Assembly (NCBI RefSeq): GCF_023208015.1
Contig: NZ_CP051627.1
Location: forward strand, 496,001-560,000
DNA length: 64,000 nucleotides
Source of the DNA: Thermobifida alba
GTDB taxonomy: Bacteria > Actinomycetota > Actinomycetes > Streptosporangiales > Streptosporangiaceae
Reading direction: 5' to 3'
The position numbers were made by a program, and so were the translations under genes. Shown piece after piece: positions 33,749 to 48,739 of the stretch; position 1 is the first letter of the stretch, and each line of letters opens with the position of its first letter. Under the pieces are notes generated by a model that worked only from the letters and a program-made list of their open reading frames with translations, ran no database searches and was not told the DNA's origin.

Positions 33749-36700
33749 TCAGACGAGCAGCCGCAGCGCCTCCAGGGCCGCACCGCGCACCAGCAGCTCG
33801 TGGCGGGTCTGGTTGCGGTAGGTGCGCAGACAGCCGTAGCAGGAGGTCTCCGCGCCGCAGTCGCAGCCGTCCACCCGTTTCACGGCTGCCAGCAGCACCT
33901 CGGGGAAGTGCTCGGCGATCCGGGTGGCCCCGCCCGCGCCGCCGGGCACCGTGTCGAACAGCACCAGGCTGGTGCTGCCCCCGTGGCGGTGGTACAGGGT
34001 GCCGTCGATGTCGTCGCGGCTGATCTCCAGCGCGGCCGACGCCCCCTCCAGCAGCGCGTACAGCAGCGAGTAGCGGGTCGCGGGCGAGGCGCTGTCGAGG
34101 TGGAACCCGCCGTTGACGACGACGTCGACGAGGTCGGTCTCGTACTTGTGCCCCAGCGTCAGCCGGGTGAGCGGCCCGGTGCAGGAGCCGCCGCCGAGCG
34201 GCTTGGGGTGCTCCTCGGGCCTGCGCCGGGCCACGCTGCCGCCCCAGCCGCACCACTCGCAGATCCAGAACCCGCGCCCGGACGGCCCCTCGGACAGCGC
34301 CACCAGTTCGCCGCGGCTTCCCGCCAGGCAGTGCACCTCGCCGCCGCCCGGCAGCGGCCACCGGTGCTCGACGGGGTCCGTGGCCAGGCGCAGTACGTGG
34401 GTGGTGCCGTGCCAGGAGCGCTGCGGCGGGACCAGGCCCGCCGACTCGGGTTTGGCGTCGGCCGCGAACCCGAACTCCGGGACGCAGTACACGGTGGGGG
34501 TGCGCCCCTCCACCGTCCCGCAGGCCGCGCAGGCCGCGTCGAGGCGTTCCGCCGCCTCCTCGTAGTACCCGCAGGAGCCGCACACCCGGTAGTGGAAGCG
34601 GCGCAGCTCCCGCCCGGGCAGCCGGTAAACGCCGCGCGACGTCCACTTCCTGCCGCCCGCGACGACCTCGCCGCCCGGCGCGTACTCGTAGATCGCGGAG
34701 GTGAGGTCGCGGGCCAGCTCCAGACGGCCGCCCACCTGGTCCTCGGCGTGGTGGGTGCGCAGCTCCACGGTGTCCACGGGGAAGCCGTACTTGGGCAGCA
34801 CGTTGCGGGTGGCCAGGAAGCCGAGCAGGGAGCGGCGCACGATGGTGTTGACGGTCTTGCCGAACCGCGCGGCCAGGGAGTCCTTGCGCTGCTCGAACGC
34901 CTCCCGGCGGCGCTGCTCGAAGTAGGCCACGTCCTGGGTGACCTCCTCGCGGAGCTGTTCCAGGAGTCCGCACAGCTCCGCGGCCCACCGGCCGCGGTCC
35001 ACGCCGAGCTCGTCGGCCACCGCCTCGGGCAGGACGCGCCGCAGTGCCGCGCTGACCTCCTCGGGCACCGGGGTGAGGAAGGCGGGCACCCGGGTGACCG
35101 GCGCGGGGGAGCCGTCGTCGCCGGGCAGGAAGAACGCGCCGACGGTGGCCCAGGTCTCCCCGGTGGCGCGGTGCCAGTGCCGGAAGAACGCGGCCAGCGC
35201 CACCGAGTGGGCGTGGCGCCGGGCGATGCGCTCGTTGGCGAGCGGCACGTAGGGGGCGCGCACCTGCCCGGCGATCATCTGCTCGGGCTCCTGGTAGCGG
35301 AACAGGTCGTGGGAGCGGCGCTGGGCGTGCGTGACCACCAGCGCGGCCGAGTCGGTGCGCCGCCCGGCGCGTCCGGCGCGCTGCACGTAGTTGGCGGTGG
35401 TGGGCGGCATGTTGCGCAGCAGCACCGCCTGGAGCTCGCCCACGTCCACGCCGAGCTCGAAAGTGGTGGAGCAGGACAGCATGTTGACGCGGCCCTCGAC
35501 GAAGTCCTCCTGGATGCGGGCGGCCTCCTCGGTGGACCACTGCGCGGTGTGCTCCTGGGCGCGCAGCACCACCGGGTTGAGGCTGCGGTAGAGGCGCCGG
35601 TAGTGGTCGTCGTCCTCCTCGGGGGCGGGCGGCGTGAACGGGTGGAGCGTGCCGGGGCAGTTGAGGGTGGGGCACACCCCGCGCACCGACACCGGGTGCA
35701 GGCGGCGGCAGCTGTCGCACTGGTGGAGCGGGGCGTGCGCGCCCACGGGGGCCAGCAGCAGGGCAGTGTGGTCGACCCGCCACACCGTGCCGAGGACGCG
35801 GTCGCTGTCCGAGCACAGCCACCCCTCGCCCTCGCGCCCGCCGCCCAGCCCGGTGAGCAGCTTCCAGGCGCCGCGCAGCAGGTCCTCGGGGGTGAGCGAG
35901 GGGCCGGTGACGCCGAGCCGGTCCAGCAGCCGCCGCAGGTAGTCGACGCGGCGGTTGCTGCCCTGGCCGGGCAGCCAGGAGATCACCTTCCGCTTGGGGT
36001 CGGGGCCGCTCTCCCGCACGTAGACGGGGCCGCGCCGGGGCGCGAACGCCTCGTCGTCGGGGGCCACCCCCTCGGGCATGGTCAGCGCGCCCTGCTGGCG
36101 CAGGGTGCGCACGAGCTCGCCGAGCAGGTCCCACGCCTCGTCCTCGTCCAGCCCGAGCATCCGGGTCAGCGCCGGGGGCAGCCGCACGCCCTCGGGGTGC
36201 TCCAGGCGGACGCGCAGCAGGCCGCGCCCCTCCAGGGACTGCCGGTCGTCGGTGGCGACGAGCTCCCGCATCACCCACAGGCCGGCGGCGTGCTCCCGGC
36301 GCTGGCGGGAGACGCGCCGCTCGAAGCTCCCGGCGCGCGCGGCCCGCCGCGCGGTGTGGCCGATCAGGTCGTCGACCCGGAAGTCGTCGTCGGCGTCGAA
36401 GCCGTGCTCCAGCCCTTCGAGGATGAGCCGCCGCTGCTGCAGCAGCGAGTAGCTGTGCTCCAGGTAGGGCGCGAAGAACGCGGCGGCCTGGCGGCTGTCG
36501 CTGAACGTGAGCAGTTTGCGGCCCCCGCCGGGGCGGTCGGCGCGCCCGGCGTCGGCGTCCTCGGGCAGCGCCTGGTAGAGCGCGGTCGCCACCACGGCCG
36601 CCGCGGCCTCGTTGCCGCTCTCCAGGCGGCGCACCGTGTCGAGGCCGCGTGCCCCGCAGGACAGGCAGCCGCTGGGGCGGCTGTTCCTGCTGCGCAGCTT

Positions 36701-38434
36701 CCGCACCGCGCGCACGGCACGGCCCGGGCAGGTGGGGACGCAGGCGCGCGCCGCGGTGCCGAGCGCGCCGCAGCCGACGCACAGGCGGTCGTCCTCGGGG
36801 GTGGTCTGCGCGGCGGATTCCTCCAGGGTGTCGTCATCGTCGTCGACGGCGATCGGGGAGTTGCCCAGATGCAGCCACAGGACCTGGTCCTGGGGGCGGC
36901 GCTGGGGCAGGAAGCGGACCGCCGCGTCCTCGGCCGCCGTGGTGCCCACCAGGTAGGCGTCGCCGCAGCGTTTGCAGGCGGCGAGCTCGAACGCGGGCGC
37001 GTGGCAGTCGGGGCAGTGCTCGTGGCGGGAGAGGAAGACGTGCGGCCCGCTGGCGGACAGGCAGGTGAACGCGCCCTCGGTGGCGCGGGTGAACAGGTGG
37101 TAGCGCGCCGAAAGCAGCGGGTTGCCGTCGGAGTCGCGGACCCGGTTGCCCAGGGCGACCAGGGCGGCCAGCGCGGCGGCGGGCCGCACGGTGCCGTCGT
37201 GCTCTCCGGCGAAGACCCGCACGGCCAGGTCCTCCAGCGGCTGCGGGCCGCCGTCGGCGAGCAGGGCACGCAGTTTCCGCACGCGCTGTTCGGCGGCGAG
37301 CACCCGGTAGGCGTCGCCGTCGGGGACGCCGTGCCGCCGGGCGGCGGCGACGAGCTCGGCCCCGGGGTCGGCGGCGCGGCCGATCGCCGCGTAGTCGGCG
37401 GCCGACAGCGGCCCCCACGGCCGGCCCGGGGCATCGGTGCGGCGGGCGGCGGTCACCAGGTCCTGCCGGTCGGGGTCGGTCGCGTCCCACTCGAACGGCG
37501 CGTCGAAGAACAGCCGGGACGCGAACGTCATCACCGCCTGCGGGTCGTCGCCGACGGTGGCGCTGGTGGCGATGCACTGCAGGCGGCGGCCGGGGGCGAC
37601 CCGGTCGCGCAGGCGGCGCAGCAGCATCGCCAGTTCGGCGGCCTTGGCCCCGTCGTAGACGTGCGCCTCGTCCAGGGCGACGAACCGCCAGTGCCCGGCG
37701 TGCTCGCCCTCGAACAGGTCGAGGTCGGCGGGGCGCAGCAGCAGGTACTCCAGCATCGCGTAGTTGGTGAGCAGCAGGTGCGGCGGCCTGCGCCGCATCT
37801 GCTCGCGGCTGATGAGCTCGTTGGGCAGCGGGTCGCGCTGGCCGTGCAGGCGGTGGTAGGAGTCGAGGGCCTGCCGGTCGCTGTCCTTGGTTTCGCCGGT
37901 GTAGCGGCCGAAGGTAATGTGCGGGCTGCCGGAGAGCAGCTCCCGCAGCCGCTTCAACTGGTCGTTGGCGAGCGCGTTCATCGGGTACAGCAGCAGCGCG
38001 CGCACGCCCGGCCCGAGCTCGCCGCGCCGGTGCTGCTCCTCCAGCTCGTTGAGGATGGGCAGCAGGAAGCTCTCGGTCTTGCCCGACCCGGTGCCGGTGG
38101 CCACCACCAGGTTGCGTCCGGCACGGGCCTTGCGGATCGCCTGCTCCTGGTGCAGGTAGAGGGGCCGGTCCAGGTGGATCGCGGGGCCGCCGGGCGCGGC
38201 GAAGGAGGGCGACAGCACGCCTTCGCCGACCAGTTGGCGCGGGGTGGCGCCGGTCCGGTAGGGCGGGGTGGCCTCCAGCAGCGGCCCCTTGGTCAGCAGT
38301 GGGCTGCCGCTGATCTGCTCCTCCAGGGCGTGGGCGAGGGTGCGGTCGCGCAGCGGCAGCAGGGAGCGCAGGTAGCGGCGGTAGCTGTCGCTGATCAGGG
38401 CGCTGACGCCGATGGGGTCCAGGGTGGTGGTCAC
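33749..38434 (-). CDS. DEAH-box helicase with DUF1998 domain (DruE-like)
   Basis: This 1,561-residue SF2 helicase has a Q-like RPLYLHQEQAI segment, Walker A ATGTGSGKTE (112-121), DEAH at 255-258, SAT at 291-293 and QRAGRAGR at 1018-1025. At least five Cys-rich zinc-ribbon pairs follow (for example CPDC/CKRC, CVGC/CVPTC, CDSC, CGSC/CAAC, CEWC). The C-terminal DUF1998 region ends CDCGAETSCYGCLRTYRNQ. The GTG start overlaps the upstream gene by four bases (GTGA) with AAGGAG upstream. The architecture matches Druantia DruE and, more distantly, DISARM DrmA/DrmB. An anti-phage role is inferred from architecture and the two-gene context. Confidence 0.85.
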   Translation of the reverse strand: MTTTLDPIGVSALISDSYRRYLRSLLPLRDRTLAHALEEQISGSPLLTKGPLLEATPPYRTGATPRQLVGEGVLSPSFAAPGGPAIHLDRPLYLHQEQAIRKARAGRNLVVATGTGSGKTESFLLPILNELEEQHRRGELGPGVRALLLYPMNALANDQLKRLRELLSGSPHITFGRYTGETKDSDRQALDSYHRLHGQRDPLPNELISREQMRRRPPHLLLTNYAMLEYLLLRPADLDLFEGEHAGHWRFVALDEAHVYDGAKAAELAMLLRRLRDRVAPGRRLQCIATSATVGDDPQAVMTFASRLFFDAPFEWDATDPDRQDLVTAARRTDAPGRPWGPLSAADYAAIGRAADPGAELVAAARRHGVPDGDAYRVLAAEQRVRKLRALLADGGPQPLEDLAVRVFAGEHDGTVRPAAALAALVALGNRVRDSDGNPLLSARYHLFTRATEGAFTCLSASGPHVFLSRHEHCPDCHAPAFELAACKRCGDAYLVGTTAAEDAAVRFLPQRRPQDQVLWLHLGNSPIAVDDDDDTLEESAAQTTPEDDRLCVGCGALGTAARACVPTCPGRAVRAVRKLRSRNSRPSGCLSCGARGLDTVRRLESGNEAAAAVVATALYQALPEDADAGRADRPGGGRKLLTFSDSRQAAAFFAPYLEHSYSLLQQRRLILEGLEHGFDADDDFRVDDLIGHTARRAARAGSFERRVSRQRREHAAGLWVMRELVATDDRQSLEGRGLLRVRLEHPEGVRLPPALTRMLGLDEDEAWDLLGELVRTLRQQGALTMPEGVAPDDEAFAPRRGPVYVRESGPDPKRKVISWLPGQGSNRRVDYLRRLLDRLGVTGPSLTPEDLLRGAWKLLTGLGGGREGEGWLCSDSDRVLGTVWRVDHTALLLAPVGAHAPLHQCDSCRRLHPVSVRGVCPTLNCPGTLHPFTPPAPEEDDDHYRRLYRSLNPVVLRAQEHTAQWSTEEAARIQEDFVEGRVNMLSCSTTFELGVDVGELQAVLLRNMPPTTANYVQRAGRAGRRTDSAALVVTHAQRRSHDLFRYQEPEQMIAGQVRAPYVPLANERIARRHAHSVALAAFFRHWHRATGETWATVGAFFLPGDDGSPAPVTRVPAFLTPVPEEVSAALRRVLPEAVADELGVDRGRWAAELCGLLEQLREEVTQDVAYFEQRRREAFEQRKDSLAARFGKTVNTIVRRSLLGFLATRNVLPKYGFPVDTVELRTHHAEDQVGGRLELARDLTSAIYEYAPGGEVVAGGRKWTSRGVYRLPGRELRRFHYRVCGSCGYYEEAAERLDAACAACGTVEGRTPTVYCVPEFGFAADAKPESAGLVPPQRSWHGTTHVLRLATDPVEHRWPLPGGGEVHCLAGSRGELVALSEGPSGRGFWICEWCGWGGSVARRRPEEHPKPLGGGSCTGPLTRLTLGHKYETDLVDVVVNGGFHLDSASPATRYSLLYALLEGASAALEISRDDIDGTLYHRHGGSTSLVLFDTVPGGAGGATRIAEHFPEVLLAAVKRVDGCDCGAETSCYGCLRTYRNQTRHELLVRGAALEALRLLV

Positions 38435-41400
38435 GCGGTCGGCTCCTTGAACAGTCGGGCGCGTTCGGTTCCGGCGAGGGTGAGTTCGGCGAGGACGAGG
38501 TCGACGGCGGCGAGGTCGGGGGCCGCGGCGGCCAGTTCCGCCCACGTCTGCCGGTAGCGGTCCACCAGCCGTCGGCAGTCGTCCACGTCCCGGGCGGCCA
38601 GGCGGGCGGCGGTGGCCAGCGCGGCGGACAGGGCGGGCAGGTCGCGCCAGGACCCGGGTCGGTCGGGGCGGCGGCTGTCGATCAGGGCGCGTGCCGCCGT
38701 CCGGTAGGCCTCGGGGAGCCGGCCGCACACCGCGGCGGTCAGCTTCAGGACGGTGGCCGCCCGAGAGCGCACCCCGTGCAGCGCAGTGTCGTTGCGCACC
38801 CCGAACAGGGCGAGGGCGGCCTGGGAGCGGTTGTCGGCGTCCAGCAGCGCCCGGGGCACCACTCCAGCGGCTCGCCACGCGGCCTTGACCTGAGCCTCGG
38901 GCATGCGGGCGAGGTGTTCGGCGGAGGCGTCGAAGCGGCCGACGCGGGCGTGCGGGTCTGCCCGGCCCGCCAGCAGTTGCGCGGCGGCGGGCCCGCAGCT
39001 GTGCTCCAGCTCCTCCAGCAGTTCGGCGTGCTCGGGCCGCTGCCGGGCGGGGTCGGTGGGGATGCGGGGCAGCAGGTCGCTGGTGGCCAGGGCGGCCGCG
39101 GCGGGCAGCCGCTGCCACAGCCGGACCGCCTCGTCCACGGTGACCCGGTCGTGCTGGGGTGCGGCGGCCAGGCCGCTGGCGATGAGGGTGCGGACGCTGT
39201 CGGCGGGGGCCAGCCCGGCGGAGCCGTGGGCGAGCAGCGCGGTGACGGGGTGTGCGCCGAGGGCGCGGGCGCAGGCGTCGACGGCGGCGCGGTCCACGCC
39301 GACGGCGGTGAGCCGGTCGGCCAGGCCCACGACCCGCCACAGCCGGGCGGCGGTCTCGTCGGTGCCGCGCAGCCGGGCGGCGTCGGCCTCCCCGGCGAGG
39401 ACCCGGGAGAGCAGCACCTCCTCGGGGTCGTCGGAGTCGGGGACGCCGGGCGCGGGGCAGGTGAGCCGGTTGGCGTCGCGCCGGTCGGGCCAGTCGGGCC
39501 ACTCCGCCGCCGACCACGGGTCGTCCACGGCCAGCAGCACCTCCAGCGGGCCGCCGTCGCGCAGGTCCTCGGGCAGGGCGATGCGGCCGTCCTTGGACAC
39601 CGGCACCACCCGGGGCGGCCGCCACGGCGCGTGGTGCGGGTAGAGGGCGGCGTCGACCCCGGGCAGGCCGGGGAAGTCCGCCAGGACGACGGTGCCGTCC
39701 TCCTGGTGCGCCCCGGTGGCCAGGCGGCGCGGGCTGACCACGGCGACGTGCAGGACCCGGTCCCGGTAGGGGGCGACGATCCGCAGGTGCCGGTGGGCGG
39801 CGGCGGTGTCGCCGAGCTGGGCGATCGGGTAGCGGACGGTGGCGCCGCCCCGGTGCGCCGCGGGCTCCACCCGCTGCACCACGTCCTCACCGGAGATCAC
39901 CGACAGCGGCCCGGGCAGCCCGCTGTCCTCCTCGCCTTCGGGGAGGCGCAGCAGCAGGTCGCCGACCCCGGTCACGGTCTCGGTGGCCAGCCGCAGCGGC
40001 TGGGGCCGCCACTGGGGGCTGGGGTCGCCGGTGCACAGTACGGCCAGGTGCGGCGGGCGGACGGTGACGGCCAGCTCGGCGGCGGCGGTGCGCAGCCGCG
40101 CCGCGAGCGTCGCCTCGCCGGAGCCGAGCCGCTGCGCCTCCGGTTCGACGTCCAGCCCGGCGGGGCCGGCCAGGACGGCCTCCACCGGTTCCAGCCCGGT
40201 GGGGGTGAGCGCCCGGAAGGCGGGCTCGTAGCGGGCGGTGAGCCCTTCGGCGACGGTGAGGTGGCGGCGCAGGCCGCGGCCGAGAGGGCCGCGCACGGTG
40301 ACCAGGAACGAGCCCAGCACCGGGCGGGGCAGGCCCTCCAGCGGGCTGACGCGCTGCCCGCTGCGGCCGGTGGCGCCGGCCAGCAGCCGTCCGGTGTCGG
40401 CGTGCAGCACGTCGATGTGCCAGTCCACGGCCTCGCCCTCGGCGTCGGGCAGCACCACCACGGGCAGGTCGGCGTGGACGGGGGAGCCCGCCGCGGTGGC
40501 CACGCCCCGCACGGGAGCGGACTGGTCGAGGTGGGGGCGGGCGCGGCCGTGCACGAGGCGCTCGGGGCAGCCCTCCAGGCCGATCCGGTCGCCGCGGCGC
40601 AGGCTCACCCGCAGCAGCGTCCACCCCTCCCAGCCGTAGGGGGTGTCGCCGACCAGGTCGTCGCCGGTGTCGCCGCCGGAGCGCAGCAGGGCCCGGTCGG
40701 CGGGGTGCAGCAGCCACAGGCGGCCGGGCGGCAGCGCGAGCCGGGGGTCGAGCGGGTCGCCGTCGTCGGTGAAGACGAGCAGCGGGTCCTCGGGGTCGAC
40801 CAGCGGCAGGTGTTCGGTGAAGCCGGTGTCGCCGAGTTCCACGCGGACGGTGCGGCTGGGGGCGGGCAGCGGGAACAGGGTGGGGGAGGCGGTGCCCGCG
40901 GCGGCGGCCCACCGGCCGTGGCCGCGCACCTGGTACGTGCCGCTGTCGGTGGTGATGCGCCAGCGCACGATGTGGTCGTCGCTGTCGCCGATGACGGGCA
41001 GCGCGACGTGCACGCCGTGCGCGTAGGGGTCGAGGCGCAGCCGGGGCCGGGCGCCCTGCTGCCGCCGGGGGCCGCCGGTGGCGGGGCGCGCGACCGGGGT
41101 CCCCGACGCGGCGGCCCGTTCCAGGGCCTCGCGGGCGGGGGCGAGGAAGCGCGGCGGCAGGCCCACGGACCGGCAGTCGGCGTCGGGGTCGTCACGGAGC
41201 CGGTCGAGCAGGTCCAGGCAGCGGTCGACGACCTCCAGGGCGTAGTCGCCGCCCTCGGTGATGAACCGCCGCGCGGGCACGTCGAGGCTGTTGAGGCGGT
41301 GCCGTCCGGACACGGCCCAGTGGTGGAAGGCGGGGGCGTCCAGGCCGGGGGTGCGCACGCTGCGTTCCAGCAGCAGGGTGAACACGTCGCCCAGGCAGTA

Positions 41401-41838
41401 GGTGGGGATGCCCGCGTGCATGAGGATCGGCGTGACGTAGGGGAAGTGCTCGTCGGGGAAGGGGTCCAGGCCCAGCCGGTCCAGGGCGCCCAGGAACGCC
41501 TTCCCCCAGGTGTCGGCGTCCTGCCGGGCGGCGGGCACGCGGGCGGTCTCCCACAGTGCGGGCCAGAACGCGCCCTGGGAGTAGCGGGCGGTGGCGATGC
41601 CGGCGGTGACGGCGGCCACGCAGGCGGGCCAGCGGAGCAGGCGGGGCTCGCGTCCCCGGTCGAGGGCCTGGGTGAGGACGCGGCCGAGCGCGATCGCGGC
41701 CTGGTCCAGGTGTTTCTGGGGCAGCGCGGTCTCGCTGACGAGGGAGCGCGACTCCAGGCGGGGCCGCCACTCGGTTTCGCGGATGTCGAGGAGTTGGGTG
41801 GAGGTGACCCTGCGGGGCTGCCGGTCGGGGGAGGGCAT
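38431..41838 (-). CDS. Large protein of unknown function, partner of the DUF1998 helicase (DruH-like candidate)
   Basis: This 1,135-residue protein has no catalytic motif I recognise. Residues 1-260 are mostly helical and include RYSQGAFWPALWE and HAGIPTYCLGDVFTLLLE. The middle (about 270-800) is beta-rich, with repeated Ig-like strands. The last third is helical (WSAAEWPDWPDRRDANRL onward). I chose ATG at 41838 with TTGGAG seven bases upstream; a GTG fifteen bases earlier is possible. It is the first gene of a two-gene operon with the helicase. Position, size and lack of known domains fit DruH of Druantia type III, but this is unverified. Confidence 0.7.
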   Translation of the reverse strand: MPSPDRQPRRVTSTQLLDIRETEWRPRLESRSLVSETALPQKHLDQAAIALGRVLTQALDRGREPRLLRWPACVAAVTAGIATARYSQGAFWPALWETARVPAARQDADTWGKAFLGALDRLGLDPFPDEHFPYVTPILMHAGIPTYCLGDVFTLLLERSVRTPGLDAPAFHHWAVSGRHRLNSLDVPARRFITEGGDYALEVVDRCLDLLDRLRDDPDADCRSVGLPPRFLAPAREALERAAASGTPVARPATGGPRRQQGARPRLRLDPYAHGVHVALPVIGDSDDHIVRWRITTDSGTYQVRGHGRWAAAAGTASPTLFPLPAPSRTVRVELGDTGFTEHLPLVDPEDPLLVFTDDGDPLDPRLALPPGRLWLLHPADRALLRSGGDTGDDLVGDTPYGWEGWTLLRVSLRRGDRIGLEGCPERLVHGRARPHLDQSAPVRGVATAAGSPVHADLPVVVLPDAEGEAVDWHIDVLHADTGRLLAGATGRSGQRVSPLEGLPRPVLGSFLVTVRGPLGRGLRRHLTVAEGLTARYEPAFRALTPTGLEPVEAVLAGPAGLDVEPEAQRLGSGEATLAARLRTAAAELAVTVRPPHLAVLCTGDPSPQWRPQPLRLATETVTGVGDLLLRLPEGEEDSGLPGPLSVISGEDVVQRVEPAAHRGGATVRYPIAQLGDTAAAHRHLRIVAPYRDRVLHVAVVSPRRLATGAHQEDGTVVLADFPGLPGVDAALYPHHAPWRPPRVVPVSKDGRIALPEDLRDGGPLEVLLAVDDPWSAAEWPDWPDRRDANRLTCPAPGVPDSDDPEEVLLSRVLAGEADAARLRGTDETAARLWRVVGLADRLTAVGVDRAAVDACARALGAHPVTALLAHGSAGLAPADSVRTLIASGLAAAPQHDRVTVDEAVRLWQRLPAAAALATSDLLPRIPTDPARQRPEHAELLEELEHSCGPAAAQLLAGRADPHARVGRFDASAEHLARMPEAQVKAAWRAAGVVPRALLDADNRSQAALALFGVRNDTALHGVRSRAATVLKLTAAVCGRLPEAYRTAARALIDSRRPDRPGSWRDLPALSAALATAARLAARDVDDCRRLVDRYRQTWAELAAAAPDLAAVDLVLAELTLAGTERARLFKEPTA

Positions 41839-42381
41839 GGCGGGCTCCAACACGCGGGGGCGGACGCGAGCGGGGATGCGGACGGCGGGGCCGGGAGCGG
41901 GGGCTTCGCCGTTCCGATGGTGTGAACATAGGCGAAAAACGAAAACTCCGTCAACTTACTTATGAGTTGTTGGGGTGTTTGCTGCTTGGTGTGTACGGAG
42001 CGGTCGGGACGTGCCGCCGTGTCCGGTTCTCCTTCGCCGAGGACCGGAGAACACCGCCGGACCAGGGGGACAATCCCCGGTCCGGCGGCGTGGTCCGCAC
42101 TGTCCCAGGGGGTGCACAGAGGGCAGCGGGGGTGGCGGGAGTGAGGCAGGCGTAGCCGCCGAGGACGGCGCCGAACAGCGCGGCCGGGCACGATCAGGCG
42201 GCGGTGTCCGGGGCGGGGTCCGCGGTCGCGCCGGTGGCGGGCGCGGGCCGCGGCGGCCGGGGCGCGGACCTGCGCGCCGGTCAGTTCGGCGCCGCCATGC
42301 CAGACCCGGTCGCCGCGCACCAGGTGGACGTGCTCGGCGGACTCCCCGGCGGGGCGGTGGTGCGAACGGTGCGGTTGCGGT
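41839..42381. other. Intergenic region upstream of the helicase operon
   Basis: The left end holds the operon leader and promoter. The middle and right part carry a possible frame-broken small gene on the minus strand, described separately. Long plus-strand frames here have no recognisable product. Confidence 0.5.
41925..41969 (-). promoter_or_regulatory. Promoter and possible operator of the helicase operon
   Basis: On the minus strand TTGACG (41954-41949) and TATGTT (41930-41925) are 18 bases apart, inside the only AT-rich stretch for kilobases. The predicted transcript has a leader of about 80 bases before the ATG at 41838. An inverted repeat CAACT(N)8AGTTG (41952-41969) overlaps the -35 box and could be an operator. 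Confidence 0.65.
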
Positions 42382-42897: not shown

Positions 42898-43335
42898 CTA
42901 TCCGACGAGTCTGCCGAGGGGGGCGTCGTTCCAGGTGAGGTGGAAGTAGACGCCGTGCCGGTGGGGGGCGAGGGGGCCCCACGTGGTGGCGAGCTGGTCG
43001 ACGAGGTACAGGCCGCGGCCGTGTGCGGCGAACGGGACGTCGGGGGCGACCACGTGCGGAAGGGAGTTCCAGCGGCGTGGGGCGCGGGTGTGCACCTCGG
43101 CCTGCACACTGCGGGCGTCGGTGCGGACCCGGACGGTGAACGTCTCACCGGGGTCGCCGGAGTGGGTGTGGCGCAGGGCGTTGGTGGCCAGTTCCGAGGT
43201 GATCAGGACGGCCCGGTCCACCACCTCGTCCGGGGCGGTGGCCTGCGGGCACAGGCGGATCGCCGCGGCGACGAACCGGCGGGCGGCGGCCACGCTGTCG
43301 GGGATGCCGGGAAAGGACGTGAACGCGACGGTCAC
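42898..43335 (-). CDS. Anti-sigma-factor-like HATPase_c protein
   Basis: This 145-residue protein is a stand-alone GHKL ATPase domain. The N-box lies in LITSELATNALRHTH, and a glycine-containing ATP lid in HGRGLYLVDQLATTWG. Such small kinase-like proteins (RsbW/SCO-type) in actinomycetes are usually paired with XRE/DUF397 regulators, as here across a divergent promoter region. They may phosphorylate anti-sigma antagonists or bind sigma factors. I chose the GTG at 43335; the ribosome site is weak, and a start a few codons upstream is possible. Confidence 0.85.
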   Translation of the reverse strand: MTVAFTSFPGIPDSVAAARRFVAAAIRLCPQATAPDEVVDRAVLITSELATNALRHTHSGDPGETFTVRVRTDARSVQAEVHTRAPRRWNSLPHVVAPDVPFAAHGRGLYLVDQLATTWGPLAPHRHGVYFHLTWNDAPLGRLVG

Positions 43336-43656
43336 CGGGCCGTCCCCGGAACACGGCACGGCACGTGGGCGCGTCCCCGGGAGGTACGCCGGGGTGGGGG
43401 AGTGGGGCGGGCAGTAGCCTGGGGCATGAGTCCTTGACCTGCTTTCTCCAGGTTGGGGGCTAAGGCCCTGATCCGGTGCGGGAACACCGGTTTGGGGTCG
43501 CCTGTGTTGCAGCTTCGGGGGTCGCGTGCACCAAGGAACCGCAGACCCGTCATTACGCTCCCACCGCACAGAAGGCCCTGTCAGGGGTTCCACCTGTCTG
43601 AACTTTTCGGTCGGAACCGGTGGCCAACCCGGTTGGCTTGTGTTGTTCTGTAGAAA
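43336..43656. other. Divergent intergenic region, HATPase / XRE remnant
   Basis: The gap is less GC-rich than its surroundings. It includes a perfect inverted repeat CCGGTG-CGGGAA-CACCGG near 43475, and TTGGCT followed by TGTAGAAAATG just ahead of the XRE remnant, which could be the old promoter. No gene is seen. Confidence 0.45.
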
Positions 43657-44091
43657 ATGGTGGAGAAACCGCACCCGGTATGGACCAGGTTCGGCTCCGA
43701 GGTTCAACGCTTCCGGCAGTCGGCTGGGCTGCCGCAGGCTCAGTCGGCCAAGAACACCAACATTTCCCTCTCCGTGTTCAGTGCTGTTGAGCGCGGAACA
43801 CGCGTCCCCGAAAAGGACTTCGCGGAAGCACCGGACTCCCTTCCCGACACGGGAAGATCGTTCACGCGGCTACGGGGCAACCTCGCCGACAAAGAAGAGA
43901 TTCCTGACCGGCGCGCCGACATCCCCGTCCCCGAACAGTCGGCGACAGAGACCCGGGAGTACCGGACGGTCCTCATACCTGGACTGATTCAGGTGGAGGG
44001 CTGTGCGAGGTCGGTCATCACTGGGACTTCGCTCCGGTTGGATGGACCGCCTTTCTCACCGACTTCAGGAACGACCGGCTGTGGTCAGTAG
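43657..44091 (+). pseudogene. Truncated XRE / DUF5753 regulator fused to a DUF397 remnant
   Basis: The frame starts HPVWTRFGSEVQRFRQSAGL, a helix-turn-helix domain typical of WhiJ/AbaA-type regulators, and reaches YRTVLIPGLIQVEGCARSVI, the start of DUF5753. It then departs into unrelated residues and stops at 144 residues, about half the normal length. From 44016 another frame encodes HHWDFAPVGWTAFLTDFRNDRL, the C-terminal end of a DUF397 protein. A deletion has therefore joined the first half of an XRE gene to the last quarter of a DUF397 gene. Some helix-turn-helix positions also look degenerate (SLSVFSAVERG). Confidence 0.75.
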
Positions 44092-44177
44092 GTTCTCACC
44101 GCTGTGGCCGCCACGGTCGGGCCCGTTCACGGGCATGACTATGGCGGCACGGTCGTCGAAGCGGTGAGGAGCTATCG

Positions 44178-44423
44178 GTGGGCGCTCTCGAAGACACCTG
44201 GCACGAATCCAGCCACAGCGGCGATGCGGGCAACGGCGTCGAGGCCGCCGTCCCCTGGCACAAGTCGTCCCACTCGATCGGGGTGTCCAACTGTGTCGAG
44301 GTGGCCGGGACCCCCGGCTCGGTCCTGGTGCGTGACACCCAGCACCGTCACCTCGGCCACCTGGACTTCACTGCGGCCGAGTGGGTGGCGTTCCTCGCCG
44401 GCCTCAGGAACGGCCGACTGTAG
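44178..44423 (+). CDS. DUF397 protein with duplicated N-terminal motif
   Basis: This 81-residue protein ends with the DUF397 signature VRDTQHRHLGHLDFTAAEW. The N-terminal half has the family motif twice in tandem: WHESSHSGDAGNGVEAA and then WHKSSHSIGVSNCVEVA. The second copy has the conserved Cys and is the normal one. DUF397 proteins are small partners of XRE/DUF5753 regulators in actinomycetes; the adjacent XRE gene here is broken, so this one may be orphaned. Confidence 0.8.
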   Translation: MGALEDTWHESSHSGDAGNGVEAAVPWHKSSHSIGVSNCVEVAGTPGSVLVRDTQHRHLGHLDFTAAEWVAFLAGLRNGRL

Positions 44424-44481
44424 CCGGACTGCGGGACGTCCGTCGGGCTGTGGCTCAGCGGATGCTTCTCCTGTCCGTCCA

Positions 44482-44508
44482 GCTTCGGCCGGGAGGCCCG
44501 GCCGAAGC
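44482..44508. terminator. Bidirectional hairpin, DUF397 / NUDIX
   Basis: GCTTCGGCCGGG and its exact complement form a 12-base stem with a three-base loop between two convergent genes. Confidence 0.8.
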
Positions 44509-44639
44509 AGCCCCGTACCCCGACAGCTCTGCCCATCCAGCAGGTAAGCCCTTCGACGGGAAGACCAGCGCTCCTGAACCCAACCACGGGTGCGGACCCG
44601 CCAGTGCAGGGACGCGTTCACGGCGACGGCGCCGGGAGG

Positions 44640-45194
44640 TCATCCGGTGATCGTCGTGAGTTTGGTGACCAGCCGCGGTGAGGGAAGCTCTGCCGGGCCG
44701 CGCCACGCGTGGCCGGTGACCTCCTCCGCTTGGAGACGCACCCCGTGAGCGGAGGCGCGGTGCAGGTAGCGGAAGTCGAAGTGCCAGTGTGCGGGCTCAC
44801 CCTTGGCAGGGTTGGCGGGAATCTGGTGGATGTCGAGGTCGATCGGGACCGGGTCCGCTCCGCCGAGCGGTTCGACGTGCTCGCGGTGCAGGCCGGTCTC
44901 CTCAGCCAGTTCACGCAGGGACGCGGCCAGCAGGTCGGCGTCCTCGGGCTCCAGGTGCCCGCCGGGCAGCAGCCAGGTGTCCAGCGCTTTGTGTCGGATC
45001 ATCAGCACCCGACCGTCGGAAGCGACCACCGCCGCCCCGGCGGTGACGTGGCCGATGCGGAATTCCTTGCGTGAGGACAGGTCGTGGCGCTCGGTCAGGG
45101 CCTGACGCAACAGCCCGACCTGGTCGTACTCGTCGGGGAAACGCACGAGGTAGCGGTCCAGGGTGATGCGGATCTGGTCATTGGTGACGGTCAT
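44640..45194 (-). CDS. NUDIX hydrolase
   Basis: This 184-residue protein contains a NUDIX box, GGHLEPEDADLLAASLRELA continuing into EETGL; it is one residue longer than the strict consensus, as is common in actinobacteria. The substrate would be a nucleoside diphosphate linked to another group, unidentified. The ATG overlaps the stop of the AdoHcy-hydrolase-like gene as ATGA, so the two are probably translated together. It is the last gene of the UTRA/GntR/AdoHcy-like group. Confidence 0.88.
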   Translation of the reverse strand: MTVTNDQIRITLDRYLVRFPDEYDQVGLLRQALTERHDLSSRKEFRIGHVTAGAAVVASDGRVLMIRHKALDTWLLPGGHLEPEDADLLAASLRELAEETGLHREHVEPLGGADPVPIDLDIHQIPANPAKGEPAHWHFDFRYLHRASAHGVRLQAEEVTGHAWRGPAELPSPRLVTKLTTITG

Positions 45195-46360
45195 GGTGCT
45201 CCAGTGAAGTGGTCCAGCCAGGTGGCCGCAATCGATTCGCGGATATCCGTGGGAAGTTCGTGGTGCCCGGGCTCGTGCTCCCGATCGGCCAGCAGCGCGG
45301 CGGCAGCGAGTATCTCGGCCTGAACCAGGAAGATGAAGGCGCCCACGCTGGCGCCGTGCAGGAAGTTGACGGCGTTGCCGTTGTTGAGGACGTAGAAGTA
45401 GTGACCGGTGCGGGAGTAGCGAGTGATATGGGGAGTGACATGCTCGCGGGTGTAGCTCCGGTTGAGTACGTCAAGTTCCAGTTCGTCGTCGGACGAAGTG
45501 ACTGATGCGATATAGGCGCCGTTGGCGACACGGTTGAAATCCCCGTGCTTGAGCGCCAGGTTGCCGGTCGCGCACACGATGATGCCGGCATCAATGAGTG
45601 CTTCCCGCAGGGAACAGGTCGTGCGAAACCCCTGGGCGAGTGCGTGTGTACGTTTGACCGGGTCGGTGTCGAACACCGTGACCTGTACGTTCCTGGCGTG
45701 CAGCATGTGAGCCACCGAGGAACCCAGCTTCCCGAACCCAATGACTGTCGCGCTGCGGCCGTAGAGGATTTCGCCCCGGGAACGGATCAGCGCTTCGGTG
45801 GAGAACACGACTGACTGGCCCACGAGGTAGTCCTCGGGGATCTTGAGCGGGGAACGGGCCACGCTGTACACCGGGCACGGTGGTTTGTCGTGGGCCAGGT
45901 AGCGGCGGTGCCCATTCTCGGTGTCCTCAACCACGCCCAGGAGCTGTCCGGAAAACCTGTCGCAGATCTGCGGGAGAGTTGGCGCGAAGTACCCGCCGAC
46001 GTCCAGCAGGACCAGACGTTGCCCGGGCGCTCGCTCCTCCAGGTAGGACACGGCTTGTTCGGGACAGGCGAAGCGGTCCCGGTCGAGTCGGTCGCACCTC
46101 CAGTGCCGGGAGGCTTCCCGGTGCGCTGTGGGATCGATGCTCTTGGGTTTGGGAAGCAACGCGCACACCTGTGTCAGTTGGGCGAGTGCGTGTAGGAAGA
46201 GTGGGCGTTCCGCGAGCAAGTGGGTGACCGCGATGGAGGACGCGCGTCGAGTGGGGACGAATTGGCTGGTGACTCTGGTGAAGTAAGCGGTGATCCGGTC
46301 GCGCTCGAAGTCTTCCAGCACGAAGGGCTCCTGGCTGAGATGAGGAGGTTGAAACGCCAC
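45191..46360 (-). CDS. S-adenosylhomocysteine hydrolase-like NAD-binding protein
   Basis: This 389-residue protein has a C-terminal Rossmann domain of the AdoHcyase type: EILYGRSATVIGFGKLGSS, then VTVFDTDPVKR and DAGIIVCATGN. The N-terminal half is divergent and lacks the usual AdoHcyase substrate motifs, and the protein is shorter than true AdoHcy hydrolases (about 430-490). It may use NAD on a different thioether or nucleoside. I chose GTG at 46360 (AAGTAAGG just upstream); a TTG at 46387 would add nine residues. It overlaps the NUDIX gene by four bases. Confidence 0.75.
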   Translation of the reverse strand: MAFQPPHLSQEPFVLEDFERDRITAYFTRVTSQFVPTRRASSIAVTHLLAERPLFLHALAQLTQVCALLPKPKSIDPTAHREASRHWRCDRLDRDRFACPEQAVSYLEERAPGQRLVLLDVGGYFAPTLPQICDRFSGQLLGVVEDTENGHRRYLAHDKPPCPVYSVARSPLKIPEDYLVGQSVVFSTEALIRSRGEILYGRSATVIGFGKLGSSVAHMLHARNVQVTVFDTDPVKRTHALAQGFRTTCSLREALIDAGIIVCATGNLALKHGDFNRVANGAYIASVTSSDDELELDVLNRSYTREHVTPHITRYSRTGHYFYVLNNGNAVNFLHGASVGAFIFLVQAEILAAAALLADREHEPGHHELPTDIRESIAATWLDHFTGAP

Positions 46361-46376
46361 AACCTTACTTCTTTGA

Positions 46377-46390
46377 TGATTAAGCAATCA
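46377..46390. promoter_or_regulatory. Palindrome upstream of the AdoHcy-hydrolase-like gene
   Basis: TGATT-AAGC-AATCA is a perfect five-base inverted repeat in a short AT-rich island, 17 bases upstream of the chosen start and 46 bases after the GntR stop. It is a reasonable operator for the adjacent GntR/UTRA regulators, though unlike the usual GT-N-TA-N-AC pattern. Confidence 0.35.
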
Positions 46391-46435
46391 AGGTAAAGAT
46401 TGTGTTCCCCCCGCCAAGTACAGGTGTTCCGGTGG

Positions 46436-47197
46436 TTACCCGATGACGTCCCGGTACAGCAGTTCGTACCGGTGGGCGCCCTTGATGAGGATGGACACCT
46501 CGACGGGGCGGGCCCGGTCGGTGTAGACAGTGCGCAGAGTACGCAACACGGGGACGTCGTCGGGCAGTTCCAGTGCCTCGAACTCCTCGGTGGTGGCCAA
46601 GCGGGCAGACACCCGGTCGACGTGTTCGCGCGCCGGATACCCCAGGTCGGCGAGGAGGCGCGGGGAGCCGCCGCGGATCTTCTTCCTCTCCAGCAGGGGG
46701 GTGCCGCGCGCGATCTCCATCGGAAAGTAGTTCCACACCAGTTCGGCGGGTTCGTCGTCCAGAAGCAGCACCTGGTGGCGCAGTGCCGCACGCTGCCCCG
46801 CCTCGATTCCCAACTCCCGAGCCACCTCGGGCGGAGGAACGGCCTCACCCACGGTGACCAGGCGTGTGGAGCCTCGCTGGGAGCGGCGCTCCGCCTCACT
46901 GATCCACCGGTAGGGCTGCTGCTCACCGGCCGGAGGGAAGTAGGAGGCAGGCTGAAGAGTCAGAGGTGTCTCGTCCCGCACATACACTCCGACCCCGGCC
47001 CGGCCGACGATGAACCCCTCCTCTTTGAGGACCTTCAGGGTGCGCTGCACGGTCTGCCCGGTCACCTGGTAGCGCGATGCCAGTTCCTGTGTGGTGGGCA
47101 ACCGCTGGCCGGGGGCCAGCACCCCGGACATGATGGCGGCGCGGAGTTCGGCCGCGATCTGCTGGTGTCGGGGACGGGAGTCCTTCTTACGCGCCAC
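46436..47197 (-). CDS. GntR-family regulator with UTRA domain (HutC type)
   Basis: This 253-residue protein has a winged helix-turn-helix (HQQIAAELRAAIMSGVLAPG, LPTTQELASRYQVTGQTVQ, GVGVYVRDE) and a C-terminal UTRA effector domain with ALRHQVLLLDDEPAELVWNY and DRVSARLATTEE. The HutC subfamily senses small metabolites. It starts three bases after the UTRA-only gene and precedes the AdoHcy-hydrolase-like gene on the same strand, which is its likely target. Confidence 0.9.
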   Translation of the reverse strand: MARKKDSRPRHQQIAAELRAAIMSGVLAPGQRLPTTQELASRYQVTGQTVQRTLKVLKEEGFIVGRAGVGVYVRDETPLTLQPASYFPPAGEQQPYRWISEAERRSQRGSTRLVTVGEAVPPPEVARELGIEAGQRAALRHQVLLLDDEPAELVWNYFPMEIARGTPLLERKKIRGGSPRLLADLGYPAREHVDRVSARLATTEEFEALELPDDVPVLRTLRTVYTDRARPVEVSILIKGAHRYELLYRDVIG

Positions 47198-47200
47198 CGT

Positions 47201-47734
47201 TCAGCCCACCACGATCCGGTAGCGCAGATGGCGGCCTTCCGGACGCATAACCATCACTGACACCTCGAAAGGGGTGCCGTCGGAGGTGCGGGTGACCCGA
47301 AACAGGACGAGTACGGGGTGCCCTTCCGCGATCTCCAGTTCGGCGGCCTCGGCAGCCGTGGCCGGGCGGACACTGACATCTTCGATCACCTCGTGGGGTG
47401 GATATCCCAGTCGGGCCAGCAGTGTGGGCGCGCCCCCGGGGATCTTGCGCGGTTCGGCCAGGCCAGTGCCCGACGCGATCGGTACCGGGTAGTAGGAGTG
47501 GGTCAACTCCACCGGTCGACCGTCGAACAGCATGGTCCGGCGGCGCAGTACGACCGGGCTGCCCTCCGCAAGAGCAAACGCCTCGGCTACCGGCCTGGGA
47601 GCGGGGACCTCGGCCACCTCGGCCAGACGTTGCGAAGTCTTTCCACCACCCTGTGCCGACCACGGGTCAGCCATTCCCCTGGCACGGGGAGTCACGTAGT
47701 CCACGGAGTCGTCGTTCACACGCGACAGATCCAC
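47201..47734 (-). CDS. UTRA-domain protein lacking a DNA-binding domain
   Basis: This 177-residue protein begins MDLSRVNDDSVDYVTPRARG and continues with a complete UTRA domain (VVLRRRTMLFDGRPVELTHS, IEDVSVRPATAAEAAEL). It has no helix-turn-helix. The GTG at 47734 follows GGGGAGGAAAC. A -10 match TACCGT (47771-47766 on the minus strand) gives a short leader. Such UTRA-only proteins are common in actinobacteria and may sense a ligand and pair with a GntR partner; one is encoded immediately downstream. Confidence 0.85.
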   Translation of the reverse strand: MDLSRVNDDSVDYVTPRARGMADPWSAQGGGKTSQRLAEVAEVPAPRPVAEAFALAEGSPVVLRRRTMLFDGRPVELTHSYYPVPIASGTGLAEPRKIPGGAPTLLARLGYPPHEVIEDVSVRPATAAEAAELEIAEGHPVLVLFRVTRTSDGTPFEVSVMVMRPEGRHLRYRIVVG

Positions 47735-47876
47735 GTTTCCTCCCCGGTGTGCTGGTTGTGGTGACACGGTAGCAAGCACCGCCTCCCCCTGTGTTCGGCC
47801 CGCAGCACCGGAACCTGGACGACTCCGGTCCCGGTGGCGTCGGTTGTGGGAGGGAACGGAAAGCTCCGCATGCGTC

Positions 47877-47933
47877 TCCGTGATGGCGCCAGGGCCATGA
47901 TCGACGTGTCGGTTGACTCTGGGAACAAGATCA
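47877..47933. repeat. 57-bp direct repeat, copy 1
   Basis: The block starting TCCGTGATGGCGCCAGGGCC matches the copy at 48366-48422 with only four differences. It lies between the UTRA-only and NIPSNAP genes and contains a small inverted repeat ATGGC-GCCAGG-GCCAT. It is not part of any recognised gene. Confidence 0.8.
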
Positions 47934-47947
47934 AGCAGTTCGGAAGG

Positions 47948-48247
47948 TCAGTAGACCCGGGTGACCACGGTCTTCTCGGTGGAGACCAGGTAGTCCTCGG
48001 GGTCGAGCTGCATCGCCGCGCGTTCGGGGGAGGCCCAGTAGCGGCGGTTGGCCTCGGCGAAGCCCTCGGGCCCGTCGTAGCCGAGCGTCCAGATGAACCG
48101 GTTGTTCTCCCGGTCGACCCACGCTCCCCCGATGGTGAACCCGAGTTCCAGGCGCAGCGGGACGATTTCCTCGCGCCAGCGCCGTACCCATTCGTCCAGC
48201 AGTCCTTCACGGACCGTGTAGACGCGGTGTTCGACCGTACCGGCCAT
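47948..48247 (-). CDS. NIPSNAP-family protein
   Basis: This 99-residue protein reads VEHRVYTVREGLLDEWVRRW, then GFTIGGAWVDRENNRFIWTL and a C-terminal strand VVTRVY, which is the ferredoxin-like dimeric alpha-beta barrel fold of NIPSNAP domains. Function is unknown. I chose ATG at 48247 with TGGAG nine bases upstream. The gene is bracketed by the two copies of a 57-bp direct repeat, suggesting that the segment was inserted or duplicated. Confidence 0.82.
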   Translation of the reverse strand: MAGTVEHRVYTVREGLLDEWVRRWREEIVPLRLELGFTIGGAWVDRENNRFIWTLGYDGPEGFAEANRRYWASPERAAMQLDPEDYLVSTEKTVVTRVY

Positions 48248-48365
48248 GGAACCGACTCCATTCTCGACGGGGGAGCGCCTGCTGGCTGTGTGCGTCACTG
48301 TAACCCGCGTGCCGCCCACTGCGCCGCCCGTTCCGCTGTGCGGTCCACGTTCTTGCGGGCCCCGA

Positions 48366-48422
48366 TCCGTGATGGCGCCAGGGCCATGAACGACGTGTCA
48401 GTTGGCTCTGGGGACAAGATCA
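48366..48422. repeat. 57-bp direct repeat, copy 2
   Basis: Second copy, in the same orientation and 489 bases from the first. Differences are at four scattered positions (for example GATC versus GAAC after the first ATG), so the duplication is not brand new. Confidence 0.8.
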
Positions 48423-48501
48423 CTGTGGGGGAACGGCGCACGCCCCCGTCCAGCCCCGTCGGGGGAGGAGCCGGGTGGCCGGAACCGGCCACCGCGCGGG
48501 G

Positions 48502-48530
48502 GTGGGGCGGGGCCGGAGAGGGCCCCGCCC
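48502..48530. terminator. GC-rich hairpin
   Basis: GGGGCGGGGCC and GGGCCCCGCCC around a short loop form a stem of about ten pairs. It closely resembles the hairpin at 42669-42701. It may isolate the methyltransferase gene from upstream transcription. Confidence 0.45.
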
Positions 48531-48739
48531 GCCGCCCGAGTGCGCCGTACCCCGCACACCCAGCCCTTTCGCAGGAAACACGTCAGATGTCCACAAAAGT
48601 CATCCCCGGCACATTCCCCCCGGAGGCACTCAACGGTCGCGAATCGGTTCCGGCAAAAGGGCCGTCGAGCTTTCCCTCAGCGATTAGTATCGTTACGCCC
48701 GCGAACTAGTGACAGTCCCCCGCGAGGAGTGTGCGCCAG

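What the first reader, a model, noticed from the sequence alone, without database searches (positions are those of the whole stretch)
33749..41954. Two-gene DEAH/DUF1998 helicase operon resembling Druantia type III
Seen: a 1,135-residue protein without recognisable domains overlaps by four bases a 1,561-residue helicase with DEAH motifs, several zinc ribbons and a C-terminal DUF1998 region. Both sit behind a dedicated promoter in an AT-rich island. Known: DruE of Druantia carries a DUF1998 helicase architecture, and type III systems consist of DruH plus DruE. The partner here may be a DruH homologue or something new. No methyltransferase or PLD gene, as DISARM would need, is adjacent. This is the best candidate in the window for a poorly described defence system.
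Basis: partly seen in the sequence, partly recalled or inferred. Interest (0 to 1): 0.72.

Follow-up and report, generated by a model that had tools for sequence, protein, structure and literature searches.

The report
Divergent Druantia-type phage-defence gene pair
Two overlapping genes in a heat-loving actinomycete look like a slimmed-down version of the known Druantia type III virus-defence system of bacteria, with a helicase that lacks the usual DNA-cutting tail and a partner protein too diverged for the defence-gene catalogue used here to recognise.

Summary
The pair is real: a 1,135-aa protein (38431-41838, -) overlaps by 4 bases a 1,561-aa DEAH/MZB helicase (33749-38434, -), behind a sigma-70-like promoter. 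It is not in an AT-rich island. The helicase is a DruE relative (PADLOC DruE3, 607 bits) with 25 residues after the zinc domain where PLD-type DruE has about 400: the nuclease tail is absent. The partner matches nothing in PADLOC, Pfam or NCBIfam, but a 42-member profile aligns colinearly with DruH (score 51.7; controls at most 27.7). Both genes occur together on one strand in 20/20, 20/21 and 16/16 fetched relatives (seven contigs counted twice; three with 2-3 genes between). About half of those loci carry RM, GmrSD, Hma, DISARM-like or Wadjet genes nearby. This fits the 'Druantia III-like / III-B' branch (PMC12458937) and probably the tested M. smegmatis pair (PMC13316683); neither sequence was in hand. 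Verdict: new member of a known kind, unseen by PADLOC's DruH models. Most novel, in relatives only: all 8 loci with a C-terminally truncated partner and readable downstream DNA carry Wadjet jetABC right after druE; no full-length locus does. No structure was obtained.

The parts
38431..41838 (-). DruH-like partner, 1,135 aa (ATG at 41838; alternative GTG at 41853 gives 1,140)
   Evidence: no hit in PADLOC/Pfam/NCBIfam (7-9, 138); remote homology to DruH by hhalign (105, 106, 120)
33749..38434 (-). DruE-like YprA-family SF2 helicase, 1,561 aa, no C-terminal nuclease domain
41925..41954 (-). sigma-70-like promoter TTGACG-18-TATGTT upstream of the pair
   Evidence: 9 of 12 matches; mean 0.0 in shuffles; consensus match only
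38431..38434 (-). 4-base overlap of the two genes (translational coupling, inferred)
   Evidence: coordinates

Best explanation
A two-gene antiphage system of the Druantia type III-like (III-B) branch. Shown here: the helicase is a DruE homologue with the SF2 core residues and MZB zinc domain but no PLD tail; the partner is, by profile comparison, a very divergent full-length DruH homologue; the two occur as a unit, in about half of the fetched loci near known defence genes. Inferred from two experimental papers on homologues: the partner senses an infection-associated phage protein (a minor tail protein in M. smegmatis; perhaps a baseplate protein in E. coli) and licenses DruE, which loads on 3'-tailed or ssDNA-containing phage DNA and blocks circularisation or replication, ending in an abortive-type response. 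Because this DruE has no nuclease domain, any cutting would have to come from the partner (E. coli DruH has dimer-enhanced nuclease activity) or from host nucleases. Likelihood: membership in the DruE/DruH lineage about 0.85; antiphage role about 0.8; the sensor-then-helicase order about 0.45.
For: DruE profile hits; DEAD/Helicase_C/MZB; phmmer to a solved 2,108-aa DEAD/DEAH helicase, 9tu7-9tuc, 301 bits; the neighbouring entry 9tud is named DruH and matches E. coli P0003 over residues 3-1119 with 2,538 bits. Helicase residues of E. coli DruE (PMC13192584 section 9) map to P0001: K121->K119, R165->R162, D251/E252->D255/E256, R1135->R1022, R1139->R1026. Partner against DruH, hhalign: score 51.7, E 1.4e-4, columns 381-920 on 415-944, second segment 56-167 on 57-159 in register; 25 column-shuffled DruH profiles at most 24.1, reversed profiles at most 21.0, the DruE profile and ten unrelated single proteins at most 27.7; without mycobacteria 53.6, without Chloroflexota 48.5. 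Linkage: helicase on the same strand next to the partner in 20/20, 20/21 (the 21st contig ends), 16/16; in L047, L049 and L079 with 2-3 genes between. Flanks shared within Thermobifida only, but for one 36% match in L077. Defence neighbours.
Against: No PADLOC model sees the partner or any of 21 relatives (0 of 21), and BLASTP to two DruH proteins finds nothing. The hhalign E-value is for a single pair and its probability is only 52%; smaller profiles gave E 0.019 and 0.25; mycobacterial members alone give score 34.7. No fold comparison could be made. Several DNA-contact residues of E. coli DruE are not kept (K812->D729, K890->V804, R652->F653). In the window no defence gene was found next to the pair; 29 of 57 locus rows show none of the defence genes probed. 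Recognising MSMEG_1253 by residue numbers failed (at most 3 of 11). The cited papers disagree on a stable DruH-DruE complex. No phage assay exists for this locus.
Confidence: 0.77

Rival explanations
1. The partner is not a DruH homologue: a DruE-family helicase has paired with an unrelated sensor or effector, so the locus is a separate, unnamed two-gene defence system.
For: No PADLOC hit for it or 20 relatives, no BLASTP similarity, 0 hits of the 13-member profile in PDB sequences, which include DruH 9tud; only profile-profile comparison links them.
Against: Colinear alignment over 491 plus 97 columns, nearly twice the best control score, stable to dropping Chloroflexota or mycobacteria; similar size (1,135 against 1,119 aa) and same gene order.
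Confidence: 0.13
2. The pair defends against plasmids or other incoming DNA rather than phages.
For: Eight truncated-partner relatives sit directly before Wadjet jetABC, a system that acts on plasmids (recalled); type I RM and GmrSD neighbours act on DNA in general.
Against: DruH-DruE pairs in M. smegmatis and E. coli restrict phages (PMC13316683 sections 7, 8; PMC13192584 section 5).
Confidence: 0.12
3. A housekeeping repair helicase of the MrfA/YprA kind with an accessory protein.
For: MZB (MrfA zinc-binding) domain; constant chromosomal place in Thermobifida; mycobacterial SftH can replace DruE (PMC13316683 section 10).
Against: DruE models score far above others; NCBIfam equivalog cut-offs not approached; three other MZB proteins exist in the same genome; patchy distribution, 5 of 396 Actinomycetota genomes with its own counted. 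The tree held no housekeeping YprA rows, so it does not test this.
Confidence: 0.05
4. A remnant or incomplete DISARM or ARMADA locus.
For: DrmA profiles hit weakly (55.7 bits); DrmD and DrmMI stand near one relative (L075).
Against: No methylase, BrxHII-like helicase or PLD domain in the ten neighbours scanned; the two-gene unit recurs in dozens of relatives.
Confidence: 0.03

Closest known systems
Druantia type III-like / III-B branch (Bell et al. 2025 preprint, PMC12458937; representative GIH50614.1)
   Same: [quoted passage not shown] our helicase ends 25 residues after MZB.
   Different: GIH50614.1 could not be fetched, so that the branch is the same is inferred. The word DruH does not occur in that main text (0 occurrences).
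M. smegmatis type III Druantia MSMEG_1253/1254 (PMC13316683; abstract, sections 5, 7-10, 14, 15 and passages seen)
   Same: Two overlapping genes of 1,132 and 1,667 aa; DExD/H, Helicase_C, DUF1998; no canonical nuclease domain in either, by the authors' statement. A 1,668-aa relative (L109) has K119, A292, R823, A1016 and C1516 at the published numbers (5 of 9); four of these map to P0001 K119, A292, A1023, C1524.
   Different: The MSMEG sequences were not in hand. The published DruH numbers fitted no relative (at most 3 of 11). Overlap 17 bp there, 4 here; DruE 106 residues longer there.
E. coli Druantia III (III-A), DruH/DruE (PMC13192584; abstract, sections 5, 9, 13 and passages seen; PDB 9tud, 9tu7-9tuc)
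   Same: Gene order, helicase core residues, zinc module, remote DruH homology.
   Different: E. coli DruE carries two C-terminal PLD domains (413 residues after the MZB end column); its DruH is seen by PADLOC (P0003, 2,539 bits), our partner is not.
ARMADA, DISARM
   Same: YprA-family helicase with MZB/DUF1998 (PMC12458937 section 5 and passages).
   Different: They carry methylase with BrxHII-like helicase or PLD genes, not seen in the ten neighbours scanned.

Membership tests
Druantia type III (DruH + DruE) | DruE: SF2 DEAH helicase with Helicase_C and DUF1998/MZB | tested here: met
Druantia type III (DruH + DruE) | Gene directly upstream in the same operon that is homologous to known DruH | tested here: met
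   Order and overlap met. Homology only by profile-profile comparison: score 51.7 against controls of at most 27.7; moderate evidence, hhalign probability 52%
Druantia type III (DruH + DruE) | Partner recognised by existing PADLOC DruH models (a tool criterion, not part of the published definition) | tested here: not met
   0 families at E<=1 and 0 of 21 relatives at E<=0.01, while two proteobacterial DruH each hit 11 families
Druantia type III (DruH + DruE) | Fold of the partner matches the DruH structure 9tud | not tested
   Structure prediction answered busy at all 18 tries
Druantia type III-A (classical) | Two PLD-like domains after MZB in DruE | tested here: not met
   25 residues after the MZB end against 402-413 in E. 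coli, P. luteola, Methylocystis and Rhizobium DruE; Azotobacter DruE also has only 31
Druantia type III-like / III-B (PMC12458937) | Nuclease-free DruE on a branch separate from classical type III | tested here: met
   own tree: 17-row clade (100/100) apart from the proteobacterial DruE rows, deep order unsure because of long branches; no tail
Druantia type III-like / III-B (PMC12458937) | Groups with the published representative GIH50614.1 | not testable with these tools
   no tool here fetches a protein by accession
Druantia (any) | Protects against phage | not testable with these tools
   no assay for this locus
DISARM / ARMADA | Adjacent methyltransferase with PLD or BrxHII-like gene | tested here: not met
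   none among ten neighbouring ORFs scanned
MrfA/YprA housekeeping helicase | Equivalog-level match to a housekeeping helicase model | tested here: not met
   best NCBIfam hit 140 bits against a cut-off of 874

The most novel reading that the evidence does not exclude
The nuclease-free DruE branch is a modular chassis whose output step is exchangeable: full-length DruH-like partners supply the effector with their C-terminal third, while relatives that have lost that third have taken a Wadjet (jetABC) machine directly downstream of druE as replacement output, i.e. a composite Druantia-Wadjet system. The window's pair would be the stand-alone form of this chassis.
Probability: 0.2. Interest if true: 0.75.

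Novelty: new member of a known kind. Interest (0 to 1): 0.45.

Why it matters
DruH-type partners of this branch escape the defence catalogue used here: 0 of 21 members match any PADLOC family, and the one canonical DruH model searched in genomes (PDLC00039) found nothing in 396 Actinomycetota (its controls rang nowhere either, and the other DruH models were not searched). Yet the partner is found, the window's genome counted where it was searched, in 27 of 150 genomes of the family (single sequence), 16 of 248 of one genus and 5 of 396 of the phylum. The locus supplies a nuclease-free DruE from a thermophile genus, useful for asking where cutting comes from in Druantia III. The truncated-partner/Wadjet linkage in relatives gives a testable case of two defence systems merged into one operon.

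Tried and rejected
DISARM, BREX, Dpd and Cas3 hits of the helicase are SF2 matches far below DruE. A single-sequence search of plasmids and of viral contigs found no partner relative, nor did the profile in viral contigs. The 13-member profile of the partner hit nothing in PDB sequences. First profile-profile tests were weak; only the 42-member profile separated clearly from controls. Chryseobacterium and Roseomonas partners did not match our family; the Chryseobacterium one matches DruH. The attempt to identify MSMEG_1253 among mycobacterial relatives by residue numbers failed. No tRNA gene lies in the window; integrases and element ends were not searched for.

Full report
What is there. The window lies in a 4.9-Mb one-contig genome whose closest named relatives at this locus are Thermobifida fusca (partner 97% identical) and T. 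cellulosilytica (88%), so it is taken to be a Thermobifida. On the minus strand a 1,135-aa gene (38431-41838) overlaps by four bases a 1,561-aa helicase gene (33749-38434). Both have the codon-position GC of real genes. A promoter-like site TTGACG-18-TATGTT stands at 41954-41925. Beyond the helicase follow a pseudouridine synthase, a lipoprotein signal peptidase, a class I aminoacyl-tRNA synthetase and DivIVA, a housekeeping cluster. The 'AT-rich island' is not there: GC over the pair is 0.743-0.793; the lower-GC stretch is 43-49 kb.

The helicase. PADLOC gives DruE3 (607 bits) and DruE1 (580 bits) far above any other system. Pfam gives DEAD, Helicase_C and MZB, all over cut-off. NCBIfam gives no equivalog near its cut-off. 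Catalytic residues that PMC13192584 (section 9) names for E. coli DruE map onto P0001 (K121, R165, D251, E252, R1135, R1139), but several DNA-contact residues do not (K812->D729, K890->V804, R652->F653), and V92, Q1477 and E1343 fall in gaps; two letters of the paper (K97, N1536) also differ in the E. coli plasmid copy used here. After the MZB domain 25 residues remain, against 402-413 in four proteobacterial DruE; Azotobacter DruE, next to a DruH-annotated gene, has only 31, and three of the four mycobacterial rows have 128-140. In a 28-row tree the window's helicase sits in a 17-row Actinomycetota-Chloroflexota clade (100/100), then with a cyanobacterial plasmid protein (95/97), apart from the proteobacterial DruE rows and from two rows that I labelled ARMADA by their neighbours; the tool warns of long branches, so the deep order is unsure. 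Bell et al. (PMC12458937; [quoted passage not shown] That record was not available; equating the two is inference.

The partner. No PADLOC, Pfam or NCBIfam family matches at E<=1, and none of 21 members of its family matches PADLOC at E<=0.01, whereas two proteobacterial DruH each match 11 DruH models. BLASTP to these two finds nothing. A profile of 42 relatives compared with a profile of 7 DruH gives score 51.7, E 1.4e-4, over columns 381-920 on 415-944, plus an N-terminal segment 56-167 on 57-159 in register at score 34.1. Controls: 25 column-shuffled DruH profiles at most 24.1; seven reversed comparisons at most 21.0; the DruE profile and ten unrelated single proteins at most 27.7, the DruH profile against the same ten at most 27.1. 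Single proteins are a milder control than profiles. Dropping Chloroflexota gives 48.5, dropping mycobacteria 53.6, mycobacteria alone only 34.7. Smaller profiles had given E 0.019 and 0.25. I read this as real but very remote homology; a structure would settle it, and none could be obtained (18 busy answers).

They travel together. The partner occurs in 27 of 150 genomes of the family with the window's own counted, in 16 of 248 of one genus, presumably Mycobacterium, and in 5 of 396 of the phylum with its own counted. Of the 26 family relatives I fetched 20 first: the helicase lies on the same strand in 20 of 20, directly after the partner in 18 and 4.6 kb away in L047 and L049. In the mycobacterial loci 16 of 16. 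Of ten further stretches, five more of the family relatives among them (G085 was not fetched), both are seen in 7; in two (L137, L138) the contig ends, and in L141 the local HMM did not find the partner again. Flanking genes of the window recur in the Thermobifida loci; among the other loci tested only one gene matches, at 36%, in L077 (41 loci, mycobacteria and later ones not included). Two distant relatives are in Chloroflexota (L086, L087).

Defence context. I probed 57 locus rows (seven contigs twice) with genes first identified by PADLOC or Pfam: type I RM, GmrSD-like, HmaC, DrmD/DrmMI, JetA/B/C. 28 rows have at least one match at E<=1e-10, some of them weak (30-37% in mycobacteria), 29 have none. 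Type I RM genes stand upstream in Nocardiopsis loci and in T. cellulosilytica; GmrSD-like and HmaC genes in Planotetraspora and kin; DrmD/DrmMI near L075; Wadjet after truncated-partner loci. The window itself shows no such neighbour among the genes scanned, and PADLOC gave nothing for four of its neighbours.

Mechanism. Shown: domains, missing nuclease, linkage, remote DruH homology. From papers on homologues: in M. smegmatis both genes are needed for full protection, DruH alone is toxic and DruE neutralises it, the proteins interact, a phage minor tail protein triggers the system, and phage DNA circularisation and replication fail (PMC13316683, sections 7-10, 14, 15 and passages). In E. coli DruE unwinds 3'-tailed DNA, DruH looks like a sensor and shows nuclease activity enhanced in dimers, and no stable DruH-DruE complex was seen (PMC13192584, sections 9, 13); the two papers differ on the interaction. 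My best reading for the window: the DruH-like partner senses, DruE loads on phage DNA intermediates and stops their use, and any cutting is done by the partner or by host enzymes. Nothing of this was tested for this locus.

Link to M. smegmatis. The published DruE residue numbers fit a 1,668-aa relative (L109) at 5 of 9 positions (K119, A292, R823, A1016, C1516), while the DruH numbers fit no relative beyond 3 of 11. So the helicase link is plausible and the partner link open.

Variants seen in relatives. Truncated partners: L054 and L056 (714, 742 aa) lack all after about residue 805 of P0002; L057-L059 (496-526 aa) lack all after about 705 and most of 156-355. All five have jetA, jetB, jetC directly after druE on the same strand (jetD was not looked for). 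I then fetched the other short-partner relatives as a test: L134, L135 and L136 have the same, making 8 of 8 with readable downstream DNA; L053 and L133 end inside druE, L137 and L138 show no druE. Among 50 full-length rows (seven contigs twice; L081 left out as cut) none has jetA or jetB; L083 has a JetC-like match farther on and on the other strand; six rows (L047, L049, L079, L086, L087, L111) show under 2 kb downstream. Three full-length loci (L139, L140, L142) have none. The three truncated loci in the tree form one clade, so this may be one evolutionary event. A search for papers holding Druantia, Wadjet and JetA lists three, none of which by its title treats such a fusion (listing only).

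Verdict. A new member of the Druantia type III-like kind, invisible to the DruH models used: ordinary as a class, useful as a nuclease-free example from a thermophile genus; the truncated-partner/Wadjet loci deserve their own look.

Noticed in passing
L054, L056, L057, L058, L059, L134, L135, L136: Relatives with a C-terminally truncated DruH-like partner carry Wadjet jetA-jetB-jetC directly downstream of druE, same strand: 8 of 8 loci with readable downstream DNA; jetA and jetB in none of 50 full-length rows.
   Followed up: partly
L047, L049, L079 (between partner and druE); L075 (downstream); L050 (divergent upstream): A module of an unknown 421-525-aa protein, a further protein in four of the five, and an HSP70 protein with a Zc3h12a-like NYN RNase domain (domain shown for L047, L049, L079) recurs in or next to the operon.
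   Followed up: partly
   Followed up: partly
L051, L071, L072, L080 (L046, L048 are the same contigs as L071, L072); L074 (HmaC only): GmrSD-family gene and HmaC (Hma system) near the pair; the GmrSD gene is directly upstream in L051, L071, L072 and farther off in L080.
   Followed up: partly
L037 and L127: Cyanobacterial plasmids carry an 898- or 967-aa partner matching our family profile (E 8e-6), a 307-310-aa gene and a DruE-like helicase; that of L037 has 357 residues after MZB.
   Followed up: partly
L062: Azotobacter plasmid has a DruH-family gene (annotated STY4851/ECs_5259) but a DruE ending 31 residues after MZB, so loss of the tail also occurs near classical DruH.
   Followed up: no
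L085: In Nocardiopsis halotolerans the partner gene is split over three frames while the helicase frame is open.
   Followed up: no
G000:C1:4090394, 830416, 15770: Three further MZB-domain proteins in the same genome, not classified.
   Followed up: no
window 43000-49000: Lower-GC stretch (0.64-0.69) with histidine-kinase-like ATPase, NUDIX, NAD-binding and GntR genes upstream of the pair.
   Followed up: no
L068:18206-20681: T. cellulosilytica has two extra predicted genes, the larger with reductase and hydrolase domains, between druE and rluD.
   Followed up: no
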